64,000 nucleotides of DNA from Amyelois transitella (lineage: Eukaryota > Arthropoda > Insecta > Lepidoptera > Pyralidae), in contig NC_083527.1 in the NCBI RefSeq assembly GCF_032362555.1, positions 4,650,001-4,714,000 on the forward strand. Reading direction: 5' to 3'. Each line of letters begins with the position of its first letter. The stretch's first letter is position 1. Below the pieces are notes generated by a model. The model made no database searches. It had not been told where the DNA came from and saw only the letters and a list, made by a program, of their open reading frames with translations. Position numbers and translations under genes: made by a program. Shown piece by piece: positions 18,961 to 55,826 of this stretch.

Positions 18961-20659
18961 TTACCTAACGGCACCAAAACCCACAATCTTCTCATCCGCC
19001 AACATATCACTGATTACTTGTTGCAATTTAGGCATTGTCCGAAACCTATCCTGTCCATTCAAACATTCGTTTAAAAGAACATCAAAATGTGGCCTAGACA
19101 CATTGACCTCATTCGGTATTGGATATAACAACGGGTTTTCTTGTCCGGCAAGTACGTAGCAAGCTGCCCACAGATTATGGTCACTCAGATGATGTTTACA
19201 AAGATCATGAATGGAAAACGTAAAACCGTGACCTGTGAACTCTCTGGAATAGCGTTTGTACCAATGCGGCAGGTCTTTCTGAGGGGAAATGTGTTTGTCT
19301 ATCACTATCACATCTTCCAAGTCAATGAAGGTTACTTCATCTCGCTCGTTTGCCACTATATTGTCAATAGACCAGTCCATGAGGTAGAAGCGGAACCTGG
19401 CGAATTACAAAGTGTATTAGCAAAACTTTAATTGTATATTTCCAAACACATTCAATTGAGAAAAACATTAATATTTAATTAAGAAAATAATAATATTTTT
19501 TGCTGTAAAAAAAAATAATTTGGAATGTATTCAGAACTTGACTATGACCTGACCTAGAGGTTCCCTATTCCTCCATATACTTACCTATCATGTTTAAAAG
19601 TAAAGTCCATTGCGGCGGCCAGTATCTTGGATGCAAACTTCAATTTCCTATGCCACGCTACATGCATCAGGGAGGACAAGGGTTCTCCCTCATAAGCCAC
19701 AAGCTCCAACCGTCCACAGACTCCTCCAAATGCTGGCACGGGCCAGCCCTTTGATTTTGGAAGCACCTGAAAATTTTATTCTGTTTTTATCCCAACTGGT
19801 TTTTGCTCATATCTTTTATGAATGTTATGTTTGTTCTTTGTTACCTCATATCTCCTGAATTGTACTAATACAGACTGGATATTTTAAAATATCAATCCAG
19901 CATTATTTTGATAGAAATGGACAGCTTGTTGTTAAATGGGCTGAGTTTGATCATTTAGGACTACCAAAACTGATCAATGAAATGATTTTAGAAAACAACT
20001 GCTTTGCTGTAATATATGATTATACCATTTGAAATTACCTGGATAATTATAGGTTCTGGATTAATACTAAGCATAGTCCATATGTTTATTACATCAGAAG
20101 CATATTTTGTCAGTTGGTTATTAAACACTGGCTGAAGAAGTGAATAAATACTGTATGGATAAGGACAATACACCAACCCCTTCCGTGGTTCAGTTTCAGG
20201 GTGAGATAAGTTATATTTGACTAAATTTTTAATTTTTTTATCTGCATTTTTCACAGACAATAAATCTGTTGGCTTACAATTTTCTTTCAAACCCCAAGTC
20301 TTACAAAGCTTTGAGTCAAACTCCTTCAATTCCCAACTGTGTGATAATTTCTTCAAGACAACTCTTCTGTTGTTGGATTTAGTAAAGCCATAATAAATAT
20401 TTTTTGCATTGAACATTTTAGTCCATCCATAATTAGATTCTAACAAAATTTGATTGGAATATAGTTCTGGACATACTGTGACTCCGTAACACGCCGGACA
20501 GCGATTTAAATCAATTAATTGCAACACATTTGTAGATTTTAAGTCACCAAACATTAGAACGGAAGCGTAAAATGATAGGCCGAACACCAAAATCATAAAA
20601 ATAACGCGTTTACAAAATCTACGTCGCAATAACATTCTTTCATATTTCTTGTCAATCAT
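18961..20659 (-). CDS. DIPK2A/B-type divergent protein kinase domain protein, 3 exons
   Basis: Exons 20039-20659, 19585-19766 and 18961-19396 join in phase (0, then 2) into 412 codons; human DIPK2A is about 430. The N-terminus is basic, followed by a single hydrophobic segment at residues 19-37, fitting a signal anchor and a Golgi or secretory location. Family signatures seen: LIDLNRCPACYG (C54, C57), RRVVLKKL (candidate ATP lysine at 103-104), NPEPIIIQ at the end of exon 1, GGVCGRLELVAYEGEPL in exon 2, and in exon 3 DWSIDN (D275 to N280, the kinase catalytic-loop spacing) and FIDLED (D293, in place of DFG). It ends in a short VR tail like the vertebrate protein. Whether it corresponds to DIPK2A or DIPK2B cannot be said. 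The stop TAA overlaps a donor-like AG|GTAATA. Transcribed divergently from TMEM68. Confidence 0.88.
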
Positions 20660-36500: not shown

Positions 36501-39500
36501 AATAAATATAACAAGTTAGTTTAACTTTGTGCCGTGTGGTTCCCGGTACCAATATAAAAATAAATAGGACCATTCCATCTCTTTCCCATGGATTTCAAAA
36601 AAGACGACTAATGGATAGGCTTATAAACTTGGGATTCTTCTTTTAGACGATGGGCTACCAACCTGTCACTATTTGAATCTAAATTTTACGAGTATCATTA
36701 AGCCTAACAGCTGAACGTAGCCTATCAGTCTTTCAAGTCTCCTGGCTCAGTCTACCCCGCAAGGGATATAGACGTGATTATATGTATGTATGTTATATTA
36801 TTAAGCTTAACAGCTGAACGTGGCCTATCACTCTTTCAAGTCTGCTGGCTCTGTTTACTCCGCAAAGGATATAGACGTGATTATATGTATGTATGTTATA
36901 TTATTAAGCTTAACAGCTGAACGTGGCCTATCACTCTTTCAAGTCTGCTGGCTCTGTCTACCCCGCAAGGGATATAGACGTGATTATATGTATGTATGTT
37001 ATATTATGAAGCTTAACAGCTGAACGTGGCCTATCACTCTTTCAAGTCTGCTGGCTCTGTCTACTCGGCAAGGGATATAGACGTGATTATGTGTATATAT
37101 GTTATATTATTAAGCTTAACAGCTGAACGTGGCCTACCACTCTTTCAAGTCTGCTGGCTCTGCCTACCCCGCAAGGGATATAGACGTGATTATATGTATG
37201 TATGTTATATTATTAAGCTTGACAGCTGAACGTGGCCTATCACTCTTTCAAGTCTGCTGGCTCTGTCTACTCCGCAAGGGATATAGACGTCATATATATA
37301 TACATACATACATATGTTCACGTCTATATCCCTTGCGGGGTAGACAGAGCCAACAGTTTTGAAAGGACTGAATGGCCACGTTCAGCTATTTGGCTTAATG
37401 ATATAATTGAGATTCAAATAGTGACAGGTTGCTAGTCCATCGCCTAAAAAGGAATCCCAAGTTTGTAAGCCTATCCCTTAGTCGCCTTTAACGACATCCA
37501 TGGGAAAGAGATGGAGTGGTCCTATTCTTTTTTGTATTGGTGCCGGGAAATGTGTGGTTCCTGAAAAAAAAGAATAGGTAATATATATATATACATATAT
37601 GTATGCAATCTTTTTAACAATGAATCTCTTTGATTCCAGTGGAGTATGTGGACGCGGAGTACAGCCTGTGGCTGACCTGGTTCCTGACCCCGGTGATCGT
37701 GACCTTCCTGCTGCCGGCAGTCATCATCCTACTCATATACATCAGCAGTATTATATTCCATTTGTATAGGCTTTACAGGTGCGTTTGTTTTGTTTATTTG
37801 TAGATATATTTGCAGCTGAATTACATATTTTAGTTGAACCTTAATTGTTATGTGCCCTGCGGTTCGTAGCATTTTAGAATGGAATAGAATAGATGGAATG
37901 GAATGGAATGAAATCGAATCGAATGGAATGGAATTATTTTCAAAATTAGATACAAATTATTGAGGATGAATGAAAGCAGGTTGACTAAGCAGATATACGA
38001 GGAGAGTGTGGAGGGAAAGGTCGGAGTGAGAAGGCCTAGACGAACGTATCTTGATCTAATCAAGGACGTCCTGGCAAAGGGTCAGGTCAAGAGTACCCGA
38101 AATCGCCGAGCTGTGCATGAAGAGAGTTATGAATGTGTATGAAGTGAAGGAAGTATGCACAGATCGTGGCAAAAGGTAATAATGCAGTCTTTGTCTACCC
38201 CTCCAGGAAAAAGGCGTGATTTTATGTACGTATGTATGTCTTCTTCTTCTTCCGGCCCTGGTCTCGTTATGTGGGGTCGGGTCTCCTCACTTACCTGCGC
38301 CAAGACATTCGGTATTGGCTTGTCGATTCTGCCAACTGGGCTTGCTTGAGATCCTTTTGGATATTTGACCGCCAGGTCAATGGTGGGCGGCCTCTTCCTC
38401 TTTTTTGTTCAGGCTGCCTTAGCGCAATTGACCACATCATCACGTGGCTTTCTTCACGTCTTTTAACATGGCCATACCAACCAACGTAAGCGGTGTTCTG
38501 TCATTTTATTTGCGACTAGCAGTGCCCGCGACTTCGTCCGCGTGGAATAGTTTTTTTGGGCATCATTGAAGCCCTCAATGAATAATATCCCAGTTTTTTT
38601 TTGGAAGAAATATTTTCCATTATTTCTTTGCTCCTTTATAGTTGCAGCATGATGTTATATACCTAGCCTAAAGCCTTCCTCGATAAATGGTCTATTTAAC
38701 ACAAAAATCATTTTTCAATTCGGACCAGCAGTTCCCGATATTAGCGCGTTCAAACAAACAAACGAACTCTTCAGCTTTATAACATTAGTATACATAGATT
38801 TAAATTTTTAAAATTCCAGATTACGTGTAGTGGACGGAGTGCAGAATGATTGGAAGCAAGCGGCGAGGCTGGCGGTGTGCGCGCTCTGGGACGCCCACGG
38901 GTGGCTTTGGCATGGTGAGTTATATACATACATACGCATATATATATTATATATATATATAATCACGTCTTTTTCGCTTGCGGGGTAGACAGAGCCGACA
39001 GTCTTGTAAAGACTGATAACGTGGCCTACGTTCAGCTGTTTGGCCCGATGACAGAATCGAGATTCATATAAAGTGACAGGTTGCTAGCCAATCGCCTAAA
39101 AGAAGAATCCCAAGTTATCGACATCCATGGGACGAGATGGAGTAGTCCTATTCTTGTTTTTTTTTGGTGCCGGGAACCACACGGCACTGCACGGCACTGT
39201 AAGATACCTATATTAATGAATAAATGTATTTTTTTTGCCGTTCCGTGTGGTTCCCGCGCACAAATAAAAAAAGGATAGGACCACTCCATCTCGTCAGCTC
39301 AAACAGCTGAACGTGGCCTTTATATCTTGTTAAGACTCTTGTCTGACCTTGGTAGGGAACCATAATGTAATTCAGTTGCCTGAATGTGCAGGATTCTTCT
39401 TAATATTCTTCTTTAAGATTTAATTAAATAAGGTGATTAAAACTCGCGACAAATTTTTATTATCATTTAATTTGTGTATTAAGAGGTTGTAAGTTAATTG

Positions 39501-47969: not shown

Positions 47970-50900
47970 TCACTTGAGGGCGCACTCGACGAAGACAGCG
48001 TGGTGTATGGCGGGCGCCAACGCGGGGTCGGGGTCCGGGGTCCCGGGGCTCGGGCTGGGGCTCTGCTGGGGGCCGGTCATGCGCTCGCCTATAGCGAAGT
48101 GCGCCTCCGTCAGCGGCCACAGCTCTTTGAGGACAGACCTGTGGAGATATTATTGATAGTGAGAATTGTTTTAGCTTCTTTGTTGACAAATTTTAAAACA
48201 AAATATCGCTTTGGTTTTTATTCCTGTTGCGCCTCTTTAGGAAGGACTCGGGATCCATTTATGATTTCCATCCGACTCGACCGCCACCAAAGGGAAGATC
48301 TTCCGCCAGGCTAGGTGTGATGCCTGGGGAACCGCGCGACAGACGATGTTATGTCGGAGGTTGTATTTATGCTCAAATCCATGAAATCTATGCGCGATTT
48401 AGATTCTTCACTGGTATTAGTTGAAAGCGTCAATTTCTTCGCGATGATTGACATTTGTAACGTATGGCGTAGAAATGTCGCCACAATAGTCATCATAACA
48501 TTGGCCGCGGTGTGATTCGAACCTGTGCCTTTACGCGCAACACGCGTTTCAACCAGGCACCTTACCGATTCGACCACCGACGCTCTTTTAAATGATAAAT
48601 TTGTATCGGTAAAAATGTCCCGAGGCTCTTTTAAATGATAAGTGTTTATCGGTAAAAATGTCCCGACGCTCTTTTAAGTGTGTATCGATCGGTAAAAACG
48701 TCACACTCACCACAGCTTGTGGTCGATGACGGCCCGCACCCGGGGCACGGGGAACCCGTTGAACGGCGACGCCACGGGGATGGTGTAGGCGCCCATGTCG
48801 CGCCACACCAGCCAGCTGCCCGTGCGCAGCGCCGGCAGCCGCGCCGCGCCCAGGATGCAGTCCAGCCCGTCGCACGACGGGCCCCACACCGAGCACGGCT
48901 GCGGCGGCTCCGACGACGGCTGCAATGACACCAGTTCGTTACTAAATTTTTTTTTTTTTTATACACGGTACAAATTACACAGATTGAGTTAGCCTCGAAG
49001 TAAGTTCGAAACTTGTGTTACGAGATACTAACTCAACGATACTATATTTTATAATAAATACGTATATAGATAAAGACTCAGGCCAATCAGAGAAAGTTCG
49101 TTTCTCATCATGCCCTGGCCGGCATTCGAACCCGGGACCTCCGGTGACACAGACAAGCGCACTACCGCTGCACCACAGAGGCCGCCAAAAACCTAAACTA
49201 AAACTATTTACATCACATGTGGATACGTCTATATGGCTTGCGGGGTAGACAGAGCCAATAGCGTTGCAAAGATTGATAGTTACTCGGCTTACACACCGAG
49301 CACGGCTGCGGCGGCTCCGACGACGGCTGCAATGTCAGCTGTTCAGTTACTATTTACATCACATATGGACACGTCTATATGGCTTGCGGGGTAGACAGAG
49401 CCAATAGCTTTGAAAAGACTGATAGTTACTCGGCTTAATGATAGAATTGAAATTCAAATAGTGACAGGATGCTAGATACATAGATCGCCTAAAAATAGAA
49501 TTCCAAATTAATAAGCCTATTCCTTAAGTCACCTTTTACAACATCCATTACAAACAGATGGAGTGGTTCTATAATTTTTTTTATTCATATCGAGAACCAC
49601 ACGGCACAATTCCATTATAAAGCCATACAACTGTACATGGCCTTTCGGTCTTTTCAAGAAGACCGCTTGCTCTGTCCACCACGCAAATGACATAGACGTG
49701 ACGACATGAGTACGTACGTATACGCATCAAACAATTAAATAAAACCATAGATAACCATAGGTAAAGGGTCACTCAGGTCAAAAGTACCCGAAATTATGAA
49801 TGTGGATGAAGCGAAGGAAGTATGCAGAGATCGCGGAAATTGGAAAGAGGTAGCTTACCCCTTCGGGAAAGAGGCGTGATTTTACGTATGTATGTATGTA
49901 TGTATAACCATAGGACACTGACCGTCAACAGCTCGCAGGCGACCACTTGATGGTCATACAGCACGCAATTGAAGGAGCCGTACACACCGTCGTTCACGAA
50001 GTACATGGTGTGAAGTTCGTCTTCGCCCTCTTTGGGAGTCACCTGTAAAAAAAAAAACATTTTTTTTTTATTGACCGACTTATATTGATTGTAGTGTGGT
50101 GGCCGGCACCAATAAAAAAAAAAGAGTAGGAAGTGGTCCTATTCTTTTTTTGTACTGGTACCGGGAACCACACGGCACAGTATAATATAACTATATCTAT
50201 ACATATAATAAAAAAGTAAAAATATTTTGTCTGTACATTTAGTATTTTTGACTGAAATGGATAGAGGGACACTTAGAATGAATAATAGAAAGCAAAAATA
50301 TTTTATTGGAATTTTTTGTCTGTCTGTCTGTCTGTATGTATGATCACGCTTATCTCCGAAAGTACTGAACCGATTTACTTAAAACTTTCACCAATTGCTT
50401 TGTTTTAACTCAGAAAAACATTTAAAATTTATTCCATCAAAATAGGTTCACAAAAAAAAAAGTTATGAAAGTTTGCCTGCAAATAAGTTTACGCAGAAAA
50501 ATTTGAAATTTACGCGGACCAAGTCGCGGGCTACAGCTAGTATAATAATATAATATAACTAAGGGATTGTTCACCTCTCTCTTGGCATGCACCATTGTGG
50601 CGAGGGTGTAGGCGGCGGCCGCGAAGTACCGCCCCGGCTCGGCGATCACTCGCACCGAGCGCGACGGGAAGTGGGTCTCCAGCGCCGTGTTGATCTCCGA
50701 CGCGACCTGTTTAGAATAAAATTAATAAATATATATATATATATATACATACGGACATATATATACATATACATTAAGGACGTCCTGGTAAAGGGTCAGG
50801 TCAAAAGTACCCGAAACCGCCGAGCTTGCATGAAGAGAGTTATGAATGTGGATGAAGGAAGTGTGCAGAGATCGTGGCAAGTAGAAAAAGGTAGTCTCTG

Positions 50901-53900
50901 CCTACCCCGCCGGGAAAGAGGCGTGATTTTGGCATGTATATGTGTGTGTGTGTGTGTGAGACAGCTACCTCCGCGAGGCTGCAGCCGCGGCCGCCCGGGA
51001 AGCCGCCGCCCAGGTCCAGCAGCGCCAGGCGGTGCCCCGCGTGTATATGTGTGTGTGTGTGTGTGAGACAGCTACCTCCGCGAGGCTGCAGCCGCGGCCG
51101 CCCGGGAAGCCGCCGCCCAGGTCCAGCAGCGCCAGGCGGTGCCCCGCGTGTATATGTGTGTGTGTGTGTGTGAGACAGCTACCTCCGCGAGGCTGCAGCC
51201 GCGGCCGCCCGGGAAGCCGCCGCCCAGGTCCAGCAGCGCCAGGCGGTGCCCCGCGTGTATATGTGTGTGTGTGTGTGTGAGACAGCTACCTCCGCGAGGC
51301 TGCAGCCGCGGCCGCCCGGGAAGCCGCCGCCCAGGTCCAGCAGCGCCAGGCGGTGCCCCGCGTGTATATGTGTGTGTGTGTGTGTGAGACAGCTACCTCC
51401 GCGAGGCTGCAGCCGCGGCCGCCCGGGAAGCCGCCGCCCAGGTCCAGCAGCGCCAGGCGGTGCCCCGCGTGTATATGTGTGTGTGTGTGTGTGAGACAGC
51501 TACCTCCGCGAGGCTGCAGCCGCGGCCGCCCGGGAAGCCGCCGCCCAGGTCCAGCAGCGCCAGGCGGTGCCCCGCGTGTATATGTGTGTGTGTGTGTGTG
51601 AGACAGCTACCTCCGCGAGGCTGCAGCCGCGGCCGCCCGGGAAGCCGCCGCCCAGGTCCAGCAGCGCCAGGCGGTGCCCCGCGTGTATATGTGTGTGTGT
51701 GTGTGTGAGACAGCTACCTCCGCGAGGCTGCAGCCGCGGCCGCCCGGGAAGCCGCCGCCCAGGTCCAGCAGCGCCAGGCGGTGCCCCGCGTGTATATGTG
51801 TGTGTGTGTGTGTGAGACAGCTACCTCCGCGAGGCTGCAGCCGCGGCCGCCCGGGAAGCCGCCGCCCAGGTCCAGCAGCGCCAGGCGGTGCCCCGCGTGT
51901 ATATGTGTGTGTGTGTGTGTGAGACAGCTACCTCCGCGAGGCTGCAGCCGCGGCCGCCCGGGAAGCCGCCGCCCAGGTCCAGCAGCGCCAGGCGGTGCCC
52001 CGCGTGTATATGTGTGTGTGTGTGTGTGAGACAGCTACCTCCGCGAGGCTGCAGCCGCGGCCGCCCGGGAAGCCGCCGCCCAGGTCCAGCAGCGCCAGGC
52101 GGTGCCCCGCGTGTATATGTGTGTGTGTGTGTGTGAGACAGCTACCTCCGCGAGGCTGCAGCCGCGGCCGCCCGGGAAGCCGCCGCCCAGGTCCAGCAGC
52201 GCCAGGCGGTGCCCCCCGGCCGCGAACAGCGCCCGCGCCAGCCGCACGCCGCGCGCGTACGCGCCGCCCGACCGCGCGCCCGACCCCACGTGGAACGACA
52301 CGCCCACCACCTGCCGAGGGGGGGGACATCAATTTAATAAAACATTACATTTTTATCACTACACCATTTATATAACTGTCAAAGTCACTTGTCAAATTAC
52401 TGGGGGGACATCAACATTCATAAATGTCAACAAATAAAACATTACAAATTTTATCACCAAACTGTCATATGTATATCAAAATTAATAAATAAACAACACA
52501 GACAGCGTCACGAGACTCGGAAAACCACTTCTTGCTACATACATATAATCACGTCTGTATCCCTTACGGGATAGGAAAATCCAACAATGCAGAAAAGACT
52601 AATAAGCTACGCTGAGCTGTTTGACTTAATGATTAAATTGAAATTGAAATTAATTAATAATAAAAAAAGAATAAGACAACTTCATATCTTTCCCATGTAT
52701 GTCGTAAAAAGCTACTAAGGGATAAACTTGTAAACTTTGGATTCTTCGTTTAGGCGATGGGCTAGCAACCTGTCACTATTAGAATCTCATTTCTATCATT
52801 AGGCTGAAAGTAGCCCATCAGTCTCTTCAAGAGCTCTGTCTACTCTACAAAAGATATAAGTGTGACTATGTATGTTGTATCTGAGTCTCACCTCCAAGCC
52901 GAGTACGGCGGCTAACTTGAGCAGCCTCGGCGCCTCGGAGACGGGGTCGCAGCCGAACTTGATGCCCAGCGGGCACTGCGCCTCGGCCGCGTCGCAACGT
53001 ATGCGAATCACCAATCTGGAAAACAAATATATTATAAATATATAGAGATAAGAAGTAATATTATAAAGGGTGACTTTTAATTCAACTGCATAAATTTAAC
53101 TGTTAATTGTACTCATCTAAAGGATATTTAAAAACGTTAAAAGAAAAATATCGGTTCATAATTCAGAAAGTACGAAAAAAAATTAAAGTATCAAAATCCA
53201 CGATCCTAAATACGTAATATCACCCCGGCCGGCGGAAAAGCGACGCGTAAGATTCAGAGGTCAACGACACAATTCAGGCAGCTGAGCGATCTCGACAACT
53301 CTGTACTTTACTTGATCTTGATACTAGAAAAATAATTTATTTTTCAGACACTTATTCACATGTTTAGTTTTAATTTCTTTTTGTAGTATTGGTCTTTAAT
53401 AAAGCGTGTGACGTAGTTCTTGAGGGTTTTTGAAATGTGAAAATGATGATGTTACATTTAAATAAAAATAGGCTCAAACGGCTCAGAAGCAGGGGTATAG
53501 TCTATGTTTAAAAGGATGCAGTTGTTTTAAATGTCACCCTGTAAGATTATTTCTCTATCTATTATCTCAATTCTATCATTAAGCCAAATAGCTGAACGTG
53601 GCCATTCAGTCTTTTCAAGACTGTTGGCTCTGTCTGCCCCGCAAGGGATAAGGATAAGTATAAAAATAACATACATACATACATATGGTCACGTCTACCA
53701 TATGTATGTATGTTATTTCTATAATTAGGTTTTAAATATTTTATTTAATTGCTTGGTATCAAAAGAGTTCGCATTTTATTGTCACAACGTAACCATTGAA
53801 ATCTTGTTCAAAACATGGTTTTCTCTCACCGCTCTGGAGAGGAGCCCGGGGTATGTCTTTGGCCATGGATCCTGGATTGAGTCGTTAGTTTTTACACCAA

Positions 53901-55826
53901 GTGAATCCCATCTAACTTTCTTTTAGGTTACATATCCAGTTGCCTGAATGTTAAGGTTTCCTAATGATGTTTTCCCTCATCGTGAGATCATTATGTACAT
54001 TAGTTTGAATACTAACGTATTCAACTCAAAAACGTATTGACTCAAAGGTCAGACGGGAGTCGCTTCAAGATTTACCCAATCTAGAAGTGACTATGGTTAG
54101 AGGTACACCCCATGCTTCTCTCAAAGTGTAATGTTAGGTGGAAGACACTCACTGCGCATGCGGCATGTACTGCTTGATCTTCAGCAACTCAGTCTCCGAG
54201 TCGAAGGTCATGGTGTTGACGCCGGCGGCAGACGAGTAGCGGATGTGCGAAGCCATCTTGGCCGGATTCGCGAATATTATGCGGCTGGGGGAAAGATGAA
54301 CATAATTAAGTGAGATAGCCTAAGTCTTTACCCTGGATAACTGACTAATAGTAGGAATTTTGATGGAGTGTCCTTGGGAACTGCATAATTACAAGACACA
54401 CGTGTCACCTTCGGTTAAACACGCTGCCGTAAGCAGTGTGTCTAATATATTCCATGTCTTCTCAATAATTTATCTTCTATTAAATGATTCAAATATTTAT
54501 CTTCTTTAAGTATTTACTTATTCACAGTATGTATGCACTTAAGCATTTGCTTCAATGGTATTTTTTTTTTTTCTTTTTTAAACTAGTATAATTGGCGTTC
54601 TCGGAAATTTAATTTTTGCTAACTGTTTTTATTAGTGAAAACCTGTAATTGGCTCCTAAATGTATATTTAAAAATCTAATGATTGTAAAACATTCTGTTG
54701 GTCATTCAAATATATAAAATAAAATAGTGTGTCCGCAGTTCAGTAGTAAATTTTTATTTACATATCTCCAAAAACGAAGACCTCTTCCGCGCATAATACT
54801 TCCTTACAAACCTTCCCCACGCTATCAATACATCATCAAGATAAGTTACTCACTCAGGTTTGACACCGATGGAGGTGACCAGCTCGATCTCGGCCTTGGA
54901 AGCGCAGTCGAAGCCCGTGCCGAGCGCCGCCAGCGTTGTCACCAGCAGCTTCTCGTCGTTGCATTTCACCGCTATTAAAAAAAACAAATAATTGGTATAA
55001 GTCCGCCATTGTACATATACTTCTAAATCCGATGACTGTTTTGTAATTTGTTATATTTCTTTTTATGTGCAATAAAGAGTTAACAAACAAAAAAAAACAA
55101 ATATAACGTTAGGCACAAAAGTAAACTTAATGATAGATGCTGAACAGATATACAATTTTTTCCTGTTTAATTTCACTACCCCCCAATTCAAATGATTTTA
55201 TAAGTCCGAATTTTTACCGTAGAAAGGTTCAACCCTGGGCATCAGCTCTCGCCAGCGGTGGTACCGGGCGACCACCTCGCCAATGTCCATGACGTAGAAG
55301 GGGTCCTCCTGAGTCCCGGACTCCACGATCTGGCGGATCACGTCCGTCGGCGACCACTCGCCCTCCATCACGCGGATGCGTTCTTCATCTACAATCTAAT
55401 GAATAATGATAAGGTTGAATTTTAGGCGGATTAGACTTTCATTACTAATATATTTAATGTATAACTATATTTTACATACATTCATATATATAATCACAGC
55501 CATCAGAGCCAACAGTTTTGAAAAGAATAATAGGCCATGATCAGCTGTTTGGCTATATTTTAAAGTATCGAATATTAGACTCAATATTAATATGGTCCTT
55601 CGAGCCGGATAAAATCATTAAAGCTCATTATTAAATTTGACGTTTTTCTTTGCAATGTCAATGGAGATGAGCCTATGGATATATATGATGATAAAGGTTA
55701 AATTTAAATTACTAGAGCGACTGCCGCTGAATCTCAGTCTGGACTAGTGCTATCCAAATACGTGATTCTCGAATCAGCATTATGTTATCCTAAAGTTACA
55801 CATAAAAATTAACACGATACCTTCAT
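47970..55826 (-). CDS. ODC: Ornithine decarboxylase, 10 coding exons
   Basis: Coding exons: 55821-55826 (ATG AAG only), 55218-55395, 54854-54971, 54153-54284, 52892-53015, 52146-52310, 50575-50706, 49923-50042, 48711-48919, 47970-48138. All phases agree, giving 450 codons (human 461). This PLP enzyme makes putrescine from ornithine, the first step of polyamine synthesis, in the cytosol. Visible catalytic motifs: FYAVKCN (Schiff-base K64), FHVGSG (H193), [19 protein letters not shown] (E264), [13 protein letters not shown] (D303) and [12 protein letters not shown] (C341 and D342). The intact cysteine argues for an active decarboxylase, not an antizyme inhibitor. The C-terminus has a Pro/Ser-rich stretch after residue 410 and ends VFVECALK. 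Exons 5-10 are very GC-rich. Introns hold the 107-bp exon-end array and a stray piece of exon 9. Confidence 0.97.
48510..48592 (-). mobile_element. Second tRNA-like SINE head in last ODC intron
   Basis: On the minus strand TGGTCGAATCGG fits an A box and GGTTCGAATC is a perfect B box about 40 bases on. The ends do not pair into an acceptor stem, so it is a SINE head or tRNA pseudogene. It differs from the family at 40453. Confidence 0.5.
48975..49185 (-). mobile_element. tRNA-derived SINE in ODC intron
   Basis: Same family as 40453, on the minus strand, with intact GGTTCGAATG box and the AACTTACTTCGAGGCTAACT tail. Inserted between ODC exon 9 and the stray exon-9 piece at 49292. Confidence 0.75.
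49203..49437 (-). repeat. 148-bp tandem duplication carrying a stray piece of ODC exon 9
   Basis: The stretch around 49203-49290 (CTATTTACATCACAT through GTTACTCGGCTTA) recurs at 49351-49437. Between them, 49292-49334 is a 43-base exact copy of 48885-48927, the start of ODC exon 9 with its TTGCAG acceptor. The copy lies in the intron between exons 8 and 9, so it is a decoy 3' splice site met before the true one. Confidence 0.85.
49372..49606 (-). mobile_element. Family A copy in ODC intron 8
   Basis: Its first ~65 bases are also part of the 148-bp duplication. Ends GAGAACCACACGGCAC; a plus-sense tail fragment follows to 49705. Confidence 0.65.
50283..50545 (+). mobile_element. LINE-like 3' end in ODC intron
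   Basis: CTGTCTGTCTGTCTGTATGT, then AGTACTGAACCGATTTACTT, ending GACCAAGTCGCGGGCTACAG. It shares its terminal motif with 2618-2860 but has a different body; 35815-35985 and, reversed, 15300-15470 are related (ACTGAACCGATTACGATGAA). Confidence 0.5.
50775..50935 (+). mobile_element. RTE-like 3' end abutting the ODC 107-bp array
   Basis: AAGGACGTCCTGGTAAAGGG to GGGAAAGAGGCGTGATTTTG. Where other copies run into ATGTATG, this one runs into GCATGTATATGTGTG, the spacer of the array. Confidence 0.6.
50936..52215 (-). repeat. 107-bp tandem array of an ODC exon end plus 5' splice site, 12 copies
   Basis: The mark GAGACAGCT recurs at 50958, 51065, 51172, 51279, 51386, 51493, 51600, 51707, 51814, 51921, 52028 and 52135, always 107 apart. 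Each unit holds the last 70 coding bases of exon 6, the GTAGCT donor, CTC and a run of CA ending in TATAC. By eye the copies show no difference. The highest-coordinate copy is the real exon end; the other 11 lie in the intron. The array abuts a retrotransposon tail at 50775-50935, which may have supplied the GT-rich spacer. Confidence 0.95.
52146..52310 (-). CDS. ODC: ODC coding exon 6, the exon whose 3' end is amplified
   Basis: Encodes residues 187-241, from [11 protein letters not shown] to GGRGCSLAE, phase 0 at both ends. The acceptor is CTCGGCAG|GTGG and the donor is CGGAG|GTAGCT. Its last 70 bases (52146-52215), with the donor and following (CA)n, are the template of the tandem array immediately downstream. 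Bases 52216 and above are unique, so only this copy connects to the acceptor. Confidence 0.93.
52541..52875. mobile_element. Two opposed, diverged family A pieces in ODC intron 5
   Basis: Minus-sense 52541-52640 and plus-sense 52665-52875 meet near an A-rich run, forming an imperfect inverted repeat directly 5' of exon 6 in genomic order. Confidence 0.55.
53066..53541. mobile_element. 476-bp Tc1/mariner-like MITE in ODC intron
   Basis: Second near-full copy of the element at 41121, in the same orientation, with the first base changed (AAGGGTGAC). TA flanks both ends (53064-53065 and 53542-53543). It lies between ODC exons 4 and 5. Confidence 0.75.
53830..54125. mobile_element. Broken copy of the short inverted-repeat family in ODC intron
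   Basis: Contains CCATGGATCCTGGATTGAGT (reverse orientation) and a second block near 54050 with GGTCAGACGGGAGTCGCTTC. Probably two fragments. Confidence 0.4.

What the first reader, a model, noticed from the sequence alone, without database searches (positions are those of the whole stretch)
50936..52215. Twelve tandem copies of an exon end with its 5' splice site inside ODC
The 107-bp unit is not random minisatellite DNA. It holds the last 70 coding bases of exon 6 (the GGGFPGG part of the PLP-binding region), the GTAGCT donor and intronic (CA)n. In transcription order the real exon comes first, followed by 11 decoy exon ends, each with an identical donor and none with an acceptor. Reading on past donor 1, the frame stays open to donor 2 and then meets TAG at 52035-52037, made by that donor itself (CGGAG|GTAG). 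Use of donor 2 shifts the frame (107 is not a multiple of 3), and donors 3 to 12 all include the TAG. Only donor 1 gives ODC. The array could act as a splicing sink, a copy-number-dependent brake on ODC through nonsense-mediated decay, or a length polymorphism. The apparent identity of the copies means recent expansion, homogenisation or an assembly artefact.
Basis: partly seen in the sequence, partly recalled or inferred. Interest (0 to 1): 0.88.

Follow-up and report, generated by a model that had tools for sequence, protein, structure and literature searches.

The report
Repeated exon end inside moth ODC
In a moth's ornithine decarboxylase gene, a stretch spanning an exon end and its splice site is repeated twelve times in a row; the first copy still makes the normal protein, so the array is probably a recent, mostly harmless repeat that might nevertheless leak faulty transcripts.

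Summary
The array is 50932-52215, exactly 12 whole 107-base units with one variant base in the intron-edge copy. It lies in an intact nine-exon ODC model. Each unit holds 70 bases of exon end, the GAG|GTAGCT donor, (CA)9 and part of an RTE-like retrotransposon's microsatellite tail. Only donor 1 gives ODC: donor 2 shifts the frame, donors 3 to 12 include a TAG. A search of the 327-Mb assembly found the unit only in this array.

Best reading: a tandem duplication with one end in the retrotransposon tail, recently amplified. It is tolerated because the 5'-most donor rebuilds the exon and the rest becomes intron. The closest precedent is the human ABCA7 VNTR, whose unit also carries a donor. There one-unit retention occurs but did not scale with length; downstream exon skipping did (PMC5954066). 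A copy-number-dependent sink is possible but not favoured.

No RNA, reads or orthologues were reachable.

The parts
50932..52215 (-). Array of exactly 12 units of 107 bases; 11 identical, the low-coordinate one with a single A/G difference at 50934
52146..52310 (-). Real exon (E5 of this model; the finding's exon 6), 165 bases, phase 0 at both ends, GGGFPGG segment; its last 70 bases (52146-52215) are the first exon-end copy; donor 1 GT at 52145-52144
52039..52108 (-). First decoy exon end; donor 2 GAG|GTAGCT directly 3' of it, making TAG at 52037-52035; 10 further decoys follow at 107-base steps, the last ending at 50969
50765..50957 (+). 3' end of a degraded RTE-like non-LTR retrotransposon (reading ..[13 protein letters not shown]), with GT-rich microsatellite tail, antisense to ODC; the tail is the intronic end of the repeat unit. 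Left edge chosen by eye
   Evidence: compared with PMC2887409
50575..50706 (-). Next exon (E6, 132 bases; skipping would keep the frame and remove 44 residues including EPGR)
47971..55368 (-). ODC gene model, nine coding exons: 55368-55218, 54971-54854, 54284-54153, 53015-52892, 52310-52146, 50706-50575, 50042-49923, 48919-48711, 48138-47971; open frame of 439 codons
49292..49326 (-). Second boundary duplication: decoy acceptor (TTGCAG) plus exact copy of the first 35 bases of E8; candidate donors TCG|GTGTGT (30-base in-frame micro-exon) and TGT|GTAAGC (34-base)
49203..49437 (-). Two copies (49203-49291, 49349-49437; 84 of 89 bases identical, spacing 146) of an interspersed-repeat fragment that flank the decoy acceptor, i.e. 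the intronic part of the second duplication

Best explanation
It is a tandem repeat that spans an exon/intron boundary, probably variable in number. A retrotransposon 3' fragment landed about 10 bases inside the intron. A 107-base segment running from its microsatellite tail into the exon was then tandemly duplicated with no shared letters at the join, and recently amplified to 12 near-perfect copies. The gene survives because in such a duplication the outermost sites are kept: the 5'-most donor rebuilds the exon and the remaining 11 exon ends are removed inside a longer intron (1439 bases). Shown: anatomy, frames, no other copy found in the assembly, intact ODC frame. Inferred: that donor 1 is the main site; that occasional use of later donors gives premature-stop transcripts that are degraded; and that, as in ABCA7, any length effect would appear mainly as skipping of the neighbouring exon rather than as a graded sink.
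For: 12 x 107 with one variant; the unit ends in a retrotransposon tail whose end motif elsewhere is followed by ATGT-type repeats and whose translated end is ..[11 protein letters not shown] followed by repeats, as described for lepidopteran RTE 3' fragments. All 12 own-genome matches of the unit lie in this array. Short two-copy tandem duplications are ordinary here: 7 in 20 stretches of 10 kb (periods 27-132; four of them 93-132), 5 of the 7 with 98-100% matches. A second, older boundary duplication exists in the same gene. ODC frame, Pfam domains (1.1e-70, 5.7e-23) and PDB ODC match (9e-114) are intact. The best AG in the unit scores below all eight real acceptors by my rough matrix. ABCA7 shows that a donor-bearing VNTR is compatible with canonical splicing.
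Against: No RNA, reads, second haplotype or orthologue was available, so donor choice and copy number are untested. Donor GTAGCT is weak: second lowest of eight donors in my approximate scoring, so competition among 12 equal weak sites could matter more than assumed. In ABCA7 longer arrays did go with lower expression. Near-perfect identity, including twelve identical (CA)9 runs, could also reflect consensus polishing.
Confidence: 0.62

Rival explanations
1. Copy-number-dependent splicing brake: the 11 decoy donors, each followed by (CA)9, compete with donor 1, divert transcripts into frameshift/stop forms and lower ODC through nonsense-mediated decay; allele length tunes polyamine synthesis.
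For: All 11 decoys give premature stops; donor is weak and identical 12 times; intronic (CA)n can regulate splicing through hnRNP L in mammals (stated in PMC3940906, passages). In ABCA7 longer VNTRs go with lower expression.
Against: In ABCA7 one-unit retention was about 2% and, in the cell lines, not length dependent; the length effect was exon skipping. No expression data here. Action of an insect hnRNP L on (CA)n in this gene is unproved. Near-zero divergence between units gives no sign of long-term maintenance.
Confidence: 0.15
2. Assembly or polishing artefact: the locus has fewer (or more diverged) copies and the 12 nearly identical ones were produced by the assembler.
For: 11 of 12 units identical including microsatellites; no raw reads available, sequencing method unknown.
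Against: 327 Mb in 33 contigs, the 20 contigs I touched being 7.7-13.9 Mb, so probably a long-read assembly, for which 1.3 kb is short; exactly whole units with a distinct edge variant; a neighbouring 103-base array of 5.9 copies is kept at 94% matches, so the assembly does not flatten all repeats.
Confidence: 0.17
3. [quoted passage not shown] stepwise removal of 107-base introns would also give normal ODC.
For: Every unit boundary has AG|GT; model and potato case described in PMC4974935.
Against: The AG before each donor is preceded by GC-rich exon sequence without a pyrimidine tract and scores lowest of the three AGs of the unit (-6.9 against -2.5 to 8.4 for real acceptors, approximate matrix).
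Confidence: 0.04

Closest known systems
ABCA7 intron-18 VNTR, human (PMC5954066; passages read)
   Same: Tandem repeat whose unit carries the exon's splice donor, real exon first; retention of one unit shifts the frame and gives a premature stop
   Different: ABCA7 unit is 25 bp starting at the donor GT, so it holds no coding sequence; units vary slightly and arrays run from about 12 to about 427 units between individuals. Here the unit is 107 bp, 70 of it coding, nearly invariant, in an insect; variation and transcripts unknown
Boundary-spanning tandem duplication in potato RdRp, with intron gain (PMC4974935; abstract and Results section read)
   Same: Tandem duplication crossing an exon/intron boundary in a gene
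   Different: Potato has two copies on the acceptor side and a new intron supported by RNA reads; the donor-side array here has 12 copies. The second duplication found here (E8 acceptor side) is the nearer match
RTE 3' fragments with microsatellite tails in Lepidoptera (PMC2887409; abstract, one results section and a few passages read)
   Same: RTE C-terminus, stop codon, then simple repeats
   Different: There the element explains a microsatellite; here its tail is one end of a minisatellite unit that includes an exon end
(CA)n-hnRNP L splicing regulation (eNOS; seen as a legend and a reference title in PMC3940906, passages)
   Same: Intronic (CA)n close to a splice donor
   Different: Mammalian; action in moths not shown

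Membership tests
Donor-bearing VNTR (ABCA7 type) | Tandem unit contains the exon's own 5' splice site | tested here: met
   12 of 12 units carry GCGGAG|GTAGCT
Donor-bearing VNTR (ABCA7 type) | Copy number varies between alleles | not testable with these tools
   one assembly only, no reads
Donor-bearing VNTR (ABCA7 type) | Alternative splicing at or next to the array | not testable with these tools
   no RNA data
Ordinary satellite or dispersed minisatellite | Same unit present elsewhere in the genome | tested here: not met
   12 matches at E 0.001 or better, all in this array; the tool warns that it skips simple repeats, so short or much diverged copies could be missed
Lepidopteran RTE 3' fragment | Stop codon followed at once by a simple-repeat 3' UTR, dispersed in the genome | tested here: met
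   ..GKEA* then repeats; end motif found 10 times in 264 kb, 8 of them outside the window
Lepidopteran RTE 3' fragment | Reading frame is the C-terminus of an RTE reverse transcriptase | not tested
   the C-terminal motif is recalled; no reference element was aligned
Tandem-duplication intron gain (Rogers model) | Usable acceptor made by the duplicated AGGT | tested here: inconclusive
   AG before each donor lacks a pyrimidine tract, score -6.9 by an approximate recalled matrix; no RNA
Ornithine decarboxylase | Both Pfam domains and the motifs AVKCND, GGGFPG, EPGR, WGPxCDG in one open frame | tested here: met
   (roles of the motifs recalled)

The most novel reading that the evidence does not exclude
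This moth's ODC dose is set by repeat length: two boundary-spanning duplications in one gene (11 decoy donors; one decoy acceptor with an in-frame micro-exon) provide unproductive or altered splice choices. Skipping or truncation products may keep the antizyme-binding segment (position recalled from mammals) and act on antizyme instead of making putrescine.
Probability: 0.08. Interest if true: 0.78.

Novelty: new variant of a known kind. Interest (0 to 1): 0.45.

Why it matters
It is a natural competition assay: twelve identical 5' splice sites in a row after one exon, with unambiguous product lengths (107-base multiples). It would test whether donor choice follows order, and whether donor-bearing VNTRs act by retention or by skipping of a neighbouring exon, in a gene whose dose is tightly controlled. 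It also suggests that retrotransposon tails can serve as ends for duplications that run into exons.

Tried and rejected
Ordinary satellite: rejected, the unit was found only here. Unusual DNA structure as the driver: two units folded as single-stranded DNA are no more stable than shuffles (z 0.25). RNA family in the window: none at gathering score. One search used a mistyped probe that does not occur in the array; its zero is worth nothing and only the genome size and contig number were taken from it (searches were the same probe, busy).

Not answered: the protein database (switched off); ODC paralogues in the own genome; genome-wide copies of the retrotransposon end. The unit search was busy 12 times before answered. 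So no orthologue or paralogue comparison exists in this report. Paper some searches failed; 45, 46, 47, 63, 64, 75 and 94 were answered (75 with no paper). Whether an array of this kind is in print rests on 45, 47, 64 and 94 alone, in an open-access library, on titles and abstract beginnings: 4 of 4, 12 of 12, 8 of 37 and 2 of 2 papers listed. None of the listed ones is about an exon-bearing donor array in an insect; 29 of the 37 were not seen.

Age bounds use recalled mutation rates and were computed on the 1281 identical bases, before the edge variant was noticed. That call also took the exon part of the second duplication as 36 bases; recounted it is 35.

Donor and acceptor scores come from matrices with recalled, approximate frequencies.

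Full report
What is there. The array at 50932-52215 is exactly 12 units of 107 bases. Eleven are identical; the low-coordinate one differs at one base, A50934 against G. TRF and an exact-period scan give the same array from 50935 with no mismatch. The twelve (CA)9 runs are all the same length. Each unit is 70 bases of exon end plus 37 of intron on the minus strand.

The gene. Nine exons on the minus strand join to an open frame of 439 codons with GT and AG at the eight introns; an upstream first coding exon was not located. Pfam finds both ODC domains (1.1e-70 and 5.7e-23). The best PDB match is an ODC (7odc, mouse by recall; 9e-114, residues 15-390), above antizyme inhibitor 1 (3.5e-74). The motifs AVKCND, GGGFPGG, EPGR and WGPSCDGLD are in the frame. 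By sequence this is an intact ODC, not a pseudogene.

Splicing logic. Translating each of the 12 donor choices: donor 1 gives the full protein; donor 2 adds 107 bases and stops at codon 286; donors 3-12 stop at codon 267 in the TAG made by donor 2. By a rough matrix with recalled frequencies, the donor GAG|GTAGCT scores 1.3, second lowest of eight donors in the gene (range 1.1-5.5). The three AGs in the unit score -4.4, -6.9 and -5.2, below all eight real acceptors (-2.5 to 8.4). Skipping the next exon (132 bases) or the exon itself (165) would keep the frame.

Origin. Beside the array lies a degraded retrotransposon end, reading ..[13 protein letters not shown] and then repeats. The same nucleotide end motif occurs 10 times in the 264 kb held, 8 of them outside the window; 7 of the 10 are followed directly by ATGT, two by ACGT, and the one at the array by GGCATGT. 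This fits the RTE 3' fragments with simple-repeat tails of Lepidoptera (PMC2887409, abstract and section 8 read); no reference RTE was aligned. The unit therefore runs from that tail through about 10 bases of intron into the exon. The join between exon GGTGCCCC and intron GC[A/G]TGTATATG shares no letters with the continuation on either side. At the exon edge of the array the protein lacks three residues that 7odc has (LFAAG---GHRL); whether they were lost at the duplication is unknown.

How unusual. In 20 stretches of 10 kb from the same assembly (19 arbitrary, one next to the window) TRF found 7 tandem repeats with period 20 or more at score 100 or more, all of 2.0-2.1 copies, 5 of them with 98-100% matches. 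Short two-copy duplications are thus common here; amplification to 12 is not seen in that small sample, though the window has a second array (103 bases, 5.9 copies, 94%). The 107-base unit has 12 matches in the assembly, all in this array. With recalled rates, zero differences over 1281 bases bounds the age of a star-like expansion at about 0.8 million generations, and at about 24,000 if each (CA)9 slips at 1e-5 per generation (95% bounds); these are rough and leave out the one edge variant.

A second boundary duplication. In the intron before E8 (48919-48711) a decoy acceptor with an exact copy of the first 35 bases of E8 lies at 49326-49292, between two copies of an interspersed-repeat fragment that share 84 of 89 bases. 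The real exon was later separated by what looks like a tRNA-type SINE with a poly-A end (my reading by eye of the sequence; the flanking TTTAGT letters look like its target-site copy). With donor TCG|GTGTGT the decoy gives a 30-base in-frame micro-exon ([10 protein letters not shown] repeated); with TGT|GTAAGC a 34-base one that shifts the frame. The decoy acceptor (-3.2) scores close to the real one (-2.5). At about 6% divergence in its intronic part this duplication looks far older than the donor array, and the gene has kept its frame. This supports the view that boundary duplications are tolerated because the outer sites remain usable.

Mechanism and rivals. The favoured reading is a recent, largely silent VNTR: donor 1 rebuilds the exon, the rest is intron. 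The closest precedent, ABCA7, has the exon 18 donor in its 25-bp unit; one-unit retention shifts the frame and was about 2% in the tissues measured, not affected by length in cell lines, while exon 19 skipping rose with length and expression fell (PMC5954066, passages). By analogy the effect to look for in ODC is skipping of a neighbouring exon and small amounts of +107 product. A strong sink is possible, since twelve weak equal sites each carry (CA)9, but nothing here shows it. Assembly error cannot be excluded without reads; the contiguity and the edge variant speak against it.

Novelty. Donor-bearing VNTRs and boundary-spanning duplications are known. A unit that carries 70 coding bases in 12 near-identical copies, anchored in a retrotransposon tail, is a new variant as far as four answered literature searches go (open-access library only, 26 of 55 matching papers listed, judged on titles and abstract beginnings).

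Noticed in passing
49292-49326 (minus), between 49203-49291 and 49349-49437: Second exon-boundary duplication in the same gene: decoy acceptor plus first 35 bases of E8, possible 30-base in-frame micro-exon
   Followed up: partly
36693-37299: Array of 5.9 copies of 103 bases, 94% matches, that contains an interspersed-repeat 3' end with ATGT tail (same end motif also in L001, L004, L007 and L016); followed by an inverted copy of the same motif
   Followed up: partly
around 52216 (exon edge of the array): Protein lacks three residues present in 7odc exactly at the array's exon edge; possible deletion at the duplication join
   Followed up: no
48940-49180 (minus): What looks like a tRNA-type SINE with poly-A end lies some 25 bases upstream of the real E8 acceptor, which has a poor pyrimidine tract
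   Followed up: no
18961-19404 (minus): Exon with Pfam PIP49_C (FAM69-type kinase domain), E 3.5e-07; the only one of six long frames with a Pfam match
   Followed up: no
48577-48677: 2.3 copies of a 43-base repeat just inside the intron after E8
   Followed up: no
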